Made by a program: the position numbers and the translations under genes | Notes under the pieces: model-generated | The model's database searches: none | What the model was told of the DNA's origin: nothing | What the model saw: the letters and a program-made list of their open reading frames with translations, nothing else | In this document: positions 57,274 to 63,925 of the stretch, piece by piece | Layout: the number at the start of each line of letters is the position of its first letter | Numbering within the stretch: position 1 is the stretch's first letter | Assembly (NCBI RefSeq): GCF_015234135.1 | Contig: NZ_JADGIK010000002.1 | Location: forward strand, 124,001 to 188,000 | DNA length: 64,000 bases | Direction: 5' to 3' | Source: Faecalibacter rhinopitheci | GTDB lineage: Bacteria; Bacteroidota; Bacteroidia; Flavobacteriales; Weeksellaceae

Positions 57274-57345
57274 ATCATTATAAATAGTTTATTTTAGTCC
57301 TTAATTAACACAAATTCATTACTATAATTGAATAAAAGGACTAAA

Positions 57346-59735
57346 ATGAATTATCTTAAAAACACACTAAAAACGTTCATCTATTCTTTATTTTTATTTA
57401 ATTTTAATACCGCAAATGCTCAATTTGATAGTATTGAAATTAATAAATTAACTACACAATTTAAAGATTTAATTTCTGTTAATCATAATCAAATCTTACA
57501 GCCTAAAATTGATGGATATACAATAAAATTAATTGGTTCTGACAACAAATCTACAATTGATTTAAACGGAAATATACATCAACCTCTAATTCATAAAAAA
57601 GTCAATCTACTTTTTAAAGCAACACGAAATTCAGATTCTTGCGAAGCTGAAATTCCAGTAAAAAATATTCTAGTTACTGGTAAATACACTGATCAAGGTC
57701 AGAATCAAAAACCTTTTGTTATTCCTTCATTACGGGAATGGCATGGAGAATTAGGGGAATTTAAATTAAATTCTCGTTCGAGGATAATTATCAATTCTTC
57801 TAATCCAAATTTTTCAGAAGCTGCTTATTTACTAAAAGAAGATTTAAAAAAGCAATTTGGTTATAATGTAGAAGTTGTAATCAATAAAAAACCTAAGAAG
57901 GGTGATATTATAATAGAAAATTCAATAGCTAATGAATTAGGTGAGGAAGGATATGCAATAAAAATTAAGGATTACGCTCAATTAGAAGCTCCTGCATATA
58001 GTGGAATTGTCTTTGCAACGAGAACCATTTTACAGATTTTAGACCAATCTACAGATAAGATGTCACTCCCAAAAGGAGAAATAAGAGATTATCCTACTTA
58101 CGAGGTTAGAGCTATGATGCTAGATGTAGGAAGAAAATTTTTTACTATAGATTTTCTTAATGACTATGTTGAAATATTATCTTATTATAAAATCTCAAAC
58201 TTTCAAATTCATTTAAATGATAATGCTTTTGATAAATATTTTGAATTTGATTGGGATAAAACTCCATCTGGATTTAGGTTACAAAATGACACTTATCCAG
58301 ATTTAGCCTCTAAAGATGGACATTATACTAAAAAACAATTTATTGATCTACAAAAGAAAGCTTTAAGATATGGAATAAAAATAATTCCTGAAATTGATGT
58401 TCCTGCTCATTCATTAGCTATCACGAAAATTTTCCCAGAAATAGCAAGTGATAAATACGGAAAAGATCATCTTGATTTGAATCATCCTAAAACTTACGAA
58501 GTTGTAAAAATATTTTTGATGAGTATACACAAGGTGAAAACCCCGTCTTTATAGGTGAAGAAGTGCACATTGGTACAGATGAATATGATAAAAAAGAAGC
58601 AGAAACATTTAGAAAATTTACCGATTTCTTAATTAAAATTGTTCAAAATAATGGCAAAAAAGTTAGAGCTTGGGGTGCTTTAACGCATGCAAATGGAGAT
58701 ACACCAGTTACTTCTAAAGATGTAACACTAAATATGTGGTATAATGGATATGCTGATCCTATTGAAATGAAAAAATTAGGTTACAAACAAATTTCTACAC
58801 CAGATGGATGGTTATATATTGTTCCTGCTGCTGGGTATTATTATGATTATTTGAATGTAAATAACATCTATAACAAATGGGAACCACGACATATTGGGAA
58901 TATAAGTTTTGAAAAAGGTGACCCTACCATTGTAGGTGGAATGTTTGCTATATGGAATGATATTGCTGGAAATGGAATTTCAGAAAAAGATGTACACAAT
59001 AGATCTTTTCCTGCGCTTCAAGTCTTAGCAGAAAAAATGTGGAATAGTGAGGAGCAATCCCTTTCCCTATTCGATTTTAATCAAAAGAAGTTAAGTGTAA
59101 CCGAAGCACCAGGACTAAATTTAAGAGGATATTATGGAGAATCTATTCAAAAATTAATGGATTATCATTTTGAAAATAATTTTATAAACTCTGTAAGCAA
59201 TAATAATTCTGGTATAGCGTATGAAAATATCGCATTTGTAAATGGGATTTCTGGACAAGGTATCACCTCTAACAATCAAGGTAAGATTACTTTTCCATTT
59301 GAAGAAATTGGGAATAGTTATACGGTATCATTTTGGGCTAAACCAGTTCATCCAAACGCATCACTAAATTTTAAATCTAAACATGCTATATTTTATATTA
59401 ATCCGAATGTTATTGGCTACTCACGAGAAGGTTATGATTATGAACTTTCAGAAAATACTTTGCAATCAAATTGGCATATGATCACAATTATTGGTAATAA
59501 AGAACAAACCTCTTTATTTATTAATGGTCAATTAATAAAGAAAATGGAAACTGAAAAAATCGTCCTTCCATATAAAGACAAAACAGATAAAGAAATAACA
59601 TACAACAAAGTCAAAACTCTAACTTTTCCATTACGAGATTTGATGATGAATAATTATATAATAGATGAATTTAAAGTATATAACATAGAATTTTCTAAAG
59701 ATGAAATTTTGAGTGAATATAATTTATATAAATAA
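57346..59735 (+). pseudogene. GH20 beta-N-acetylhexosaminidase, frameshifted
   Basis: Two reading frames together encode one exported GH20 enzyme. Frame one (57346-58554) has signal peptide ending NTANAQ, the GH20b-like domain, and the first part of the TIM barrel (MMLDVGRKFFTIDFLNDYVEILSYYKISNFQIHLND, IKIIPEIDVPAHSLAI, LDLNHPKTYEVVK). The other frame continues NIFDEYTQGENPVFIGEEVHIGTDE, carrying the catalytic Asp-Glu pair, then the barrel end and a LamG-like domain (about 59300-59730). Restoring one base in the A run 58506-58510 joins them. ATG at 57346 follows AAAAGGA. A sequencing error, a recent mutation or programmed slippage would all look the same. Confidence 0.88.
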
Positions 59736-63059: not shown

Positions 63060-63090
63060 TTTGGATTATTCAAAAACAGCCCTATATTTG
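63060..63090 (+). promoter_or_regulatory. Promoter of the tRNA-Val array
   Basis: TTTG (63060-63063), 19-nt spacer and TATATTTG (63083-63090): a full match to the Bacteroidota consensus. Predicted start about 63097, 9 nt ahead of the first tRNA. Confidence 0.8.
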
Positions 63091-63105
63091 CAATCCAATT
63101 ACGAA

Positions 63106-63180
63106 GGTCCCTTAGCTCAGTTGGTTCAGAGCACCTGCCTTACAAGCAGGGGGTCACTGGTTCGAATCCAGTAGGGACCA
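63106..63180 (+). tRNA. tRNA-Val (anticodon TAC), copy 1
   Basis: Complete cloverleaf: 7-bp acceptor GGTCCCT/AGGGACC, D arm GCTC/GAGC, anticodon arm CCTGC-CTTACAA-GCAGG, T arm ACTGG-TTCGAAT-CCAGT, discriminator A. The 3' CCA is not encoded. Confidence 0.97.
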
Positions 63181-63221
63181 CATAAAGACAATAGTAAGTC
63201 TTTTCAATCAAATTCTAATAA

Positions 63222-63296
63222 GGTCCCTTAGCTCAGTTGGTTCAGAGCACCTGCCTTACAAGCAGGGGGTCACTGGTTCGAATCCAGTAGGGACCA
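63222..63296 (+). tRNA. tRNA-Val (TAC), copy 2
   Basis: Identical to copy 1, with the fully Watson-Crick acceptor GGTCCCT. Confidence 0.97.
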
Positions 63297-63338
63297 CAAA
63301 AAAGACAATAGTAAGTCTTTTCAATAAAATTCTAATAA

Positions 63339-63413
63339 GGTCTCTTAGCTCAGTTGGTTCAGAGCACCTGCCTTACAAGCAGGGGGTCACTGGTTCGAAT
63401 CCAGTAGGGACCA
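63339..63413 (+). tRNA. tRNA-Val (TAC), copy 3
   Basis: Same as copy 1 except the acceptor begins GGTCTCT, giving a U-G wobble at the fifth acceptor pair. Confidence 0.97.
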
Positions 63414-63456
63414 CATAAAGACAATAGAAAGTCTTTTTAGTAAAATTCTAAAACAA

Positions 63457-63531
63457 GGTCTCTTAGCTCAGTTGGTTCAGAGCACCTGCCTTACAAGCAG
63501 GGGGTCACTGGTTCGAATCCAGTAGGGACCA
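63457..63531 (+). tRNA. tRNA-Val (TAC), copy 4
   Basis: Identical to copy 3 (GGTCTCT acceptor). Confidence 0.97.
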
Positions 63532-63573
63532 CATAAAAGACAATAGTAAGTCTTTTCAATAAAATTCTAATAA

Positions 63574-63648
63574 GGTCTCTTAGCTCAGTTGGTTCAGAGC
63601 ACCTGCCTTACAAGCAGGGGGTCACTGGTTCGAATCCAGTAGGGACCA
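63574..63648 (+). tRNA. tRNA-Val (TAC), copy 5
   Basis: Identical to copy 3. Confidence 0.97.
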
Positions 63649-63690
63649 CAAAAAAGACAATAGTAAGTCTTTTCAATAAAATTCTAATAA

Positions 63691-63765
63691 GGTCTCTTAG
63701 CTCAGTTGGTTCAGAGCACCTGCCTTACAAGCAGGGGGTCACTGGTTCGAATCCAGTAGGGACCA
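63691..63765 (+). tRNA. tRNA-Val (TAC), copy 6
   Basis: Identical to copy 3. Confidence 0.97.
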
Positions 63766-63808
63766 CATAAAGACAATAGTAAGTCTTTTTAGTAAAATTC
63801 TAAAACAA

Positions 63809-63883
63809 GGTCTCTTAGCTCAGTTGGTTCAGAGCACCTGCCTTACAAGCAGGGGGTCACTGGTTCGAATCCAGTAGGGACCA
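63809..63883 (+). tRNA. tRNA-Val (TAC), copy 7
   Basis: Identical to copy 3; last of the array, directly followed by a strong terminator instead of a spacer. Confidence 0.97.
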
Positions 63884-63885
63884 CA

Positions 63886-63925
63886 TAAAATTCCTTTCAA
63901 GATTACTTGAAAGGAATTTTTATTT
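63886..63925. terminator. Terminator of the tRNA array (probably bidirectional)
   Basis: A 15-bp stem (63887-63901 with 63906-63920), 4-nt loop, and T-rich tail. An A/T-rich left arm lets it serve the minus-strand gene end at 63925 as well. Confidence 0.85.

What the first reader, a model, noticed from the sequence alone, without database searches (positions are those of the whole stretch)
63106..63883. Seven tandem tRNA-Val(UAC) genes with a three-unit higher-order repeat
Seven near-identical tRNA-Val genes sit in 117-nt units. The spacers show a nested pattern: 2 equals 5, 3 nearly equals 6, 1 resembles 4, and copy n lies 351-352 nt from copy n+3. This implies a three-unit block was duplicated, plus one end unit. 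Copies 1-2 have a GGTCCCT acceptor and 3-7 GGTCTCT, so base changes have spread unevenly, as expected from gene conversion or unequal crossover. Such arrays should vary in copy number between strains.
Basis: seen in the sequence. Interest (0 to 1): 0.6.

Follow-up and report, generated by a model that had tools for sequence, protein, structure and literature searches.

The report
Tandem valine-tRNA array with structured spacers
This is an ordinary run of seven nearly identical valine-tRNA genes that grows and shrinks by tandem duplication in the Empedobacter group of bacteria, but comparison with relatives shows that its short spacers carry a conserved folded RNA element (a hairpin that can close into a pseudoknot) that I did not find described anywhere.

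Summary
In detail: seven tRNA-Val(UAC) genes (63106-63884), spacers of 40-42 nt, and an AAB-AAB three-unit repeat (201-bp exact repeat at lag 352). They are the only valine tRNAs found in this 44-contig genome of the Empedobacter/Faecalibacter/Algoriella genus. One Bacteroidota promoter and one terminator bracket the array. It is not an oddity: all 14 genomes of the genus carry it, with 3-7 copies where assembled whole. Units differ by 4.0 positions within genomes and 13.5 between: concerted evolution by unequal recombination. Other genera of the family have 1-3 copies. Lys, His, Asp and Gln tRNAs are tandemly amplified too. The new part is in the spacers. Val, Lys and His spacers, unrelated in sequence, share one design: a 5-7 bp stem a few nt after the tRNA, whose loop pairs with the 3' part of the spacer (H-type pseudoknot), with covariation in all three. 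No Rfam family matches and no paper was found. In the window's own array the second stem is intact only in spacer 3; the other five carry a U-U mismatch. Function (pre-tRNA maturation) is inference; strain-level copy number could not be tested.

The parts
63060..63090 (+). Bacteroidota-type promoter: TTTG, N19, TATATTTG
   Evidence: near-identical in the other genus genomes
63091..63105 (+). 5' leader CAATCCAATTACGAA before tRNA copy 1
   Evidence: conserved in the genus
63106..63181 (+). tRNA-Val(UAC) copy 1, GGTCCCT acceptor
63182..63221 (+). spacer 1 (class A, 40 nt); hairpin AAAGAC/GTCTTT at 63184-63203
   Evidence: -4.5 kcal/mol
63222..63297 (+). tRNA-Val(UAC) copy 2, GGTCCCT acceptor
63298..63338 (+). 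spacer 2 (class A, 41 nt, identical to spacer 5); hairpin 63300-63321
   Evidence: -5.6 kcal/mol, 2/200 shuffles as good
63339..63414 (+). tRNA-Val(UAC) copy 3, GGTCTCT acceptor
63415..63456 (+). spacer 3 (class B, 42 nt): the only window spacer with both stems intact; S1 AAAGAC/GTCTTT 63417-63436, S2 TAGAA 63425-63429 with TTCTA 63446-63450
   Evidence: 0/100 shuffles as good
63457..63532 (+). tRNA-Val(UAC) copy 4, GGTCTCT acceptor
63533..63573 (+). spacer 4 (class A, 41 nt); hairpin 63535-63556
63574..63649 (+). tRNA-Val(UAC) copy 5, GGTCTCT acceptor
63650..63690 (+). spacer 5 (class A, 41 nt, identical to spacer 2); hairpin 63652-63673
63691..63766 (+). tRNA-Val(UAC) copy 6, GGTCTCT acceptor
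63767..63808 (+). spacer 6 (class B, 42 nt; carries the class-A base in the loop); hairpin 63769-63788
63809..63884 (+). tRNA-Val(UAC) copy 7, GGTCTCT acceptor
63887..63920 (+). intrinsic terminator, 15-pair stem followed by a T-rich tail, ending the array
   Evidence: -17.3 kcal/mol, z -6.3; a terminator-like hairpin follows the last copy in the genus
63106..63456 (+). first three-unit block (A A B, 351 nt)
63457..63808 (+). second three-unit block (A A B, 352 nt)

Best explanation
A single-promoter operon of seven copies of the only valine tRNA found in this genome. Shown: it is genus-wide, in a conserved place, expands and contracts in tandem, and is homogenised within genomes (concerted evolution); the AAB-AAB pattern is best read as one three-unit duplication. 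Inferred: high copy number supplies gene dosage in lineages with many rRNA operons. Supported by covariation: the spacers are not neutral filler but a conserved RNA element, a hairpin a few nt after each tRNA whose loop pairs with the 3' part of the spacer (H-type pseudoknot), which Lys and His arrays of the same genomes have in other sequences. Inferred, weaker: in the polycistronic precursor this compact fold shapes 3' and 5' tRNA maturation (CCA is not encoded), for example by blocking exonucleases so that an endonuclease sets the 3' end, and by holding the leader of the next tRNA for RNase P. In the window's own lineage the second stem is weakened in five of six spacers, so there the hairpin alone may suffice.
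For: Array and decoding: (87 tRNAs, 7 Val, all UAC). Promoter and terminator. Genus-wide copies 7, 4, 4, 6, 5, 6, 4, 4, 3, 5, 5, 6 in the 12 genomes assembled through the array; synteny with the LPG_synthase_TM gene upstream and lspA, dksA/traR, ileS downstream. Concerted evolution. Family background 1-3 matches in genomes of other genera, Lys mostly 2. Dosage: tRNA gene number follows amino-acid usage once Met and the collapsed rRNA-operon tRNAs are excluded (rho 0.59, p 0.012); closed genomes show about 6-9 further tRNA hits of the rRNA-operon type, a proxy for rRNA operon number. Spacer structure: Lys S2 13 cells with changes on both sides (0/500 shuffles); His 10 cells on both stems (0/500); Val 6 cells (0/500). 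Own loop against other genomes' tails, permutation p: Val family plus genus 0.0002, Lys 0.0002, His 0.015. Same geometry in Val, Lys and His, not seen beyond shuffles in the other tRNA spacers of this genome. Family Val-Val spacers show covarying second stems CGAA/UUCG, CUGAA/UUCAG, CGAU/AUCG.
Against: In the window five of six spacers have GUAA instead of GAAA in the loop, leaving a U-U mismatch in the second stem; most spacers of sister G004 share this. The genus Val spacers alone give little covariation, because stem 2 hardly varies outside G005 and G011. G-U against A-C mismatch counts do not favour an RNA over a DNA origin. An equilibrium folding test gave no sign that real spacers keep the cloverleaves native better than shuffled ones (pseudoknots not modelled). 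Shuffles of 3' letters do not remove relatedness. His is oversupplied (5 genes for 1.65% of residues), so dosage does not explain every array.
Confidence: 0.7

Rival explanations
1. Ordinary tandem duplication only. Spacers are neutral, and the hairpin is a by-product of AT-rich sequence or the relic of a terminator copied with each unit.
For: The array behaves as concerted evolution predicts; stem 1 of Val ends in CUUUU, like a weak terminator; the window's stem 2 is mostly broken.
Against: Compensating changes across Lys, His and family Val spacers; Lys stem 1 has no U tract; real spacers beat dinucleotide shuffles in most genomes while other tRNA spacers do not.
Confidence: 0.22
2. The count of seven and the three-unit pattern are partly an assembly artefact of a draft genome.
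For: 44-contig draft; the Lys array of the same genome is cut at contig ends, and in G013 and G002 the Val array itself is broken or holds an N gap.
Against: The window array is continuous, its units are distinguishable, the longest exact repeat is 201 bp, and closed genomes of the genus have 4-6 copies, some with mixed spacers.
Confidence: 0.12
3. The spacer hairpin is a partial transcription terminator that grades expression along the array rather than a maturation element.
For: Val stem 1 ends in a short U run.
Against: The terminator scan calls only the final hairpin; the spacer stem has two G-C pairs and about -5 kcal/mol; Lys spacers lack a U run; stem 2 covariation is not expected of a terminator.
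Confidence: 0.15

Closest known systems
Tandem same-isoacceptor tRNA operons under concerted evolution (general bacterial phenomenon; from general knowledge)
   Same: Near-identical head-to-tail copies, one promoter, one terminator, copy number differing between species, homogenisation within a genome, odd copies at the ends.
   Different: Spacers carry a conserved structured element shared in design, not in sequence, with the Lys and His arrays.
tRNA gene clusters / tRNA arrays (Morgado and Vicente, PMC6409571)
   Same: Dense run of tRNA genes (about 9 per kb here, above the 2 per kb used there).
   Different: That survey required at least 15 tRNA genes and covered viral genomes, with clusters that mostly span many codons; here 7 copies of one chromosomal isoacceptor, vertically inherited in a conserved place.
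H-type RNA pseudoknots with an A-rich third loop (for example preQ1-I riboswitches; from general knowledge)
   Same: Topology S1-L1-S2-L2-S1'-L3-S2' with short L1/L2 and A-rich L3.
   Different: No Rfam match to such a family in the spacers, located between tRNAs, no expression platform or ligand evidence.

Membership tests
Tandem tRNA operon under concerted evolution | Head-to-tail near-identical tRNA genes | tested here: met
Tandem tRNA operon under concerted evolution | One promoter before and one terminator after, no strong terminator between | tested here: inconclusive
   Consensus scans and conservation support it, but weak sigma-70-like matches (9 of 12) recur in spacers and there are no expression data
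Tandem tRNA operon under concerted evolution | Units more alike within than between genomes | tested here: met
   4.0 v 13.5 differences, permutation p < 0.001
Tandem tRNA operon under concerted evolution | Copy number varies among relatives at one orthologous site | tested here: met
   3-7 copies in 12 species, conserved neighbours
Tandem tRNA operon under concerted evolution | Copy number varies among strains of one species | not testable with these tools
   Only one genome per species is held
tRNA gene cluster as surveyed in PMC6409571 | At least 2 tRNA per kb and at least 15 genes | tested here: not met
   Density met, gene number (7) not
H-type pseudoknot | Stem 1 conserved with compensating changes | tested here: met
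   Val 1 pair, His 2 pairs; Lys stem 1 invariant except compensated variants in G005
H-type pseudoknot | Stem 2 (loop with 3' tail) conserved with compensating changes | tested here: met
   Lys and His, Val across the family; in the window's own array intact only in spacer 3
H-type pseudoknot | Structure forms in RNA | not testable with these tools
   Needs SHAPE/DMS probing
Any Rfam family other than tRNA | Match above gathering score | tested here: not met
   Only RF00005 above cut-off

The most novel reading that the evidence does not exclude
A previously undescribed class of pre-tRNA spacer RNA: H-type pseudoknots that arose or diverged separately in Val, Lys and His tandem tRNA arrays of this bacterial family and that act in maturation of polycistronic tRNA precursors.
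Probability: 0.4. Interest if true: 0.6.

Novelty: new variant of a known kind. Interest (0 to 1): 0.4.

Why it matters
The array alone is a clean natural record of tandem duplication and concerted evolution of a bacterial tRNA. The spacer element, if real, means that inter-tRNA spacers can be selected RNA structures rather than filler, and it gives a concrete handle on how these Bacteroidota, which do not encode CCA on these tRNAs, mature polycistronic tRNA precursors.

Tried and rejected
Insulator test by equilibrium folding of multi-unit precursors: no benefit of real over shuffled spacers. G-U versus A-C asymmetry to prove RNA-level selection: inconclusive. Known RNA family: none. Pseudoknots as a general feature of all tRNA spacers in this genome: rejected; Gln, Asp, Pro, Gly-Leu, Ser-Pro-Arg, Asn and Met spacers do not show it clearly beyond shuffles. 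Ten paper searches found no description of structured spacers in tandem tRNA arrays or of this array; the library is open-access only.

Full report
Observation. Seven tRNA-Val(UAC) genes are present at 63106-63884, in 116-118-nt units with 40-42-nt spacers. Spacer differences at lag 3 are 2, 0 and 1, against means of 5.2 and 5.5 at lags 1 and 2, and a 201-bp exact repeat exists at lag 352. TRF scores period 352 highest. With six spacers there are only 15 pairings, so the permutation p cannot fall below 0.067; lag 3 is the best of them. The acceptor change C5 to U5 keeps pairing with G68 (C-G to U-G).

Genome context. It has 87 tRNA genes; ARAGORN on the fetched loci gives 7 Val, all UAC, and tandem sets of Lys (7 plus 1 at another contig end), His (5), Asp (4), Gln (4), Gly-Leu, Thr-Tyr, Ser-Pro-Arg and Met pairs. 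Tandem tRNA amplification is therefore a genome-wide habit. Val is 6.0% of residues in window ORFs, 84% of its codons GTA or GTT.

Anatomy. Upstream lies a Bacteroidota-type promoter, TTTG-N19-TATATTTG, at 63060-63090, nearly invariant through the genus. A strong terminator closes the array at 63887-63920. CCA is not encoded (sequence). Flanking genes are an LPG_synthase_TM-domain gene upstream and lspA, a dksA/traR zinc-finger gene and ileS downstream (ileS named from its sequence only), conserved in the genus except for the downstream side of G004 and G012.

Relatives. All 14 genus genomes have the array: G000 7, G001 4, G003 4, G004 6, G005 5, G006 6, G007 4, G008 4, G009 3, G010 5, G011 5, G012 6; G002 has an N gap and G013 is split over two contigs. 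Among 110 sampled genomes of the family, those of other genera have at most 3 matches for Val, often as a tandem pair, and mostly 2 for Lys. So a tandem pair is widespread in the family, and expansion to 3-7 is a feature of this genus.

Concerted evolution. 48 units differ by 4.0 positions within and 13.5 between genomes (permutation p < 0.001). G000 holds two spacer classes in the order A A B A A B; class A groups with units of its sister G004 (sister support 0.99). The one difference between spacers 3 and 6 is the class-A base, consistent with a short conversion tract or a repeated mutation. Odd copies are at ends: G000 copies 1-2, G005 copy 1, G011 copy 5, G012 copy 1, as expected when interior units homogenise fastest.

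Spacer structure. Each Val spacer can form AAAGAC/GUCUUU, with one pair changed on both sides in G011/G013. In most genus genomes the loop UAGAA can pair with UUCUA near the 3' end. Lys and His spacers of the same genomes, unrelated in sequence, show the same topology with clear covariation: Lys stem 2 GUUACUA/UAGUAAC, GUUAUUG/CAAUAAC, UGUUAUCG/CGGUAGCA, and in G005 UCUAUU/AAUAGA, where neighbouring copies have stem-1 variants ACUUC/GAAGU, ACUUG/CAAGU and ACUUU/AAAGU; His AAACU/AGUUU with GAAUUU/AAAUUC, and in G005 AAACG/CGUUU with GAAUAG/CUAUUC. Across the family the shorter Val-Val spacers fold as AAAGG/CCUUU with CGAA/UUCG, CUGAA/UUCAG or CGAU/AUCG, where the last G is G1 of the next tRNA in most cases. 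Own-tail pairing is better than pairing with other genomes' tails: p 0.0002 (Val), 0.0002 (Lys), 0.015 (His). Sliding the partners destroys the signal for Lys and His. Other tRNA spacers of this genome do not show it, and Rfam has nothing above cut-off but tRNA.

Limits. In the window five of six spacers carry GUAA in the loop, which leaves a U-U mismatch in stem 2, so the claim rests on relatives and on the Lys and His arrays more than on the window itself. Wobble asymmetry did not separate RNA from DNA selection. The folding-insulator idea got no support from equilibrium models without pseudoknots. Related sequences inflate shuffle tests, and the His signal rests mainly on one divergent genome (G005). 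Function is inferred from position only.

Mechanism. Shown: single-operon anatomy by sequence, genus-wide conservation, copy-number change, homogenisation. Supported: a two-stem spacer fold. Inferred: dosage benefit, and a role of the spacer in separating and maturing the tRNAs of a polycistronic precursor. The weakest step is the last.

Noticed in passing
L089 1-889 (G000 C42) and L095 306-379 (G000 C2): A tRNA-Lys(UUU) array of seven is cut by the contig end and another Lys unit ends contig C2, so the true Lys number is uncertain; copies alternate between GACCTGG/CCAGGTC and GACTTGG/CCAAGTC acceptors (a compensated change) with period two.
   Followed up: partly
L089, spacer after Lys copy 1; L119-L128: Only the first Lys spacer is long (86-125 nt) and carries its own Bacteroidota-type promoter; each later Lys leader ends in a UCC...GGA mini-hairpin abutting the tRNA.
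   Followed up: no
L107 319-884 (G000 C1): Five tRNA-His genes for an amino acid that is 1.65% of residues: oversupply not explained by demand.
   Followed up: no
G001 C1:52744-53453: In Faecalibacter macacae the Asp array has six copies with a 251-nt two-unit repeat, a parallel higher-order duplication; Gln also has six matches there.
   Followed up: no
L097 303-641 (G000 C23): Two tRNA-Phe genes in a direct duplication of about 265 nt that includes promoter and terminator, unlike the operon-type arrays.
   Followed up: no
window 57328-59735: A beta-N-acetylhexosaminidase-like reading frame is split in two (57328-58554 and 58563-59735), possibly a frameshift or sequencing error; family read from the sequence only.
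   Followed up: no
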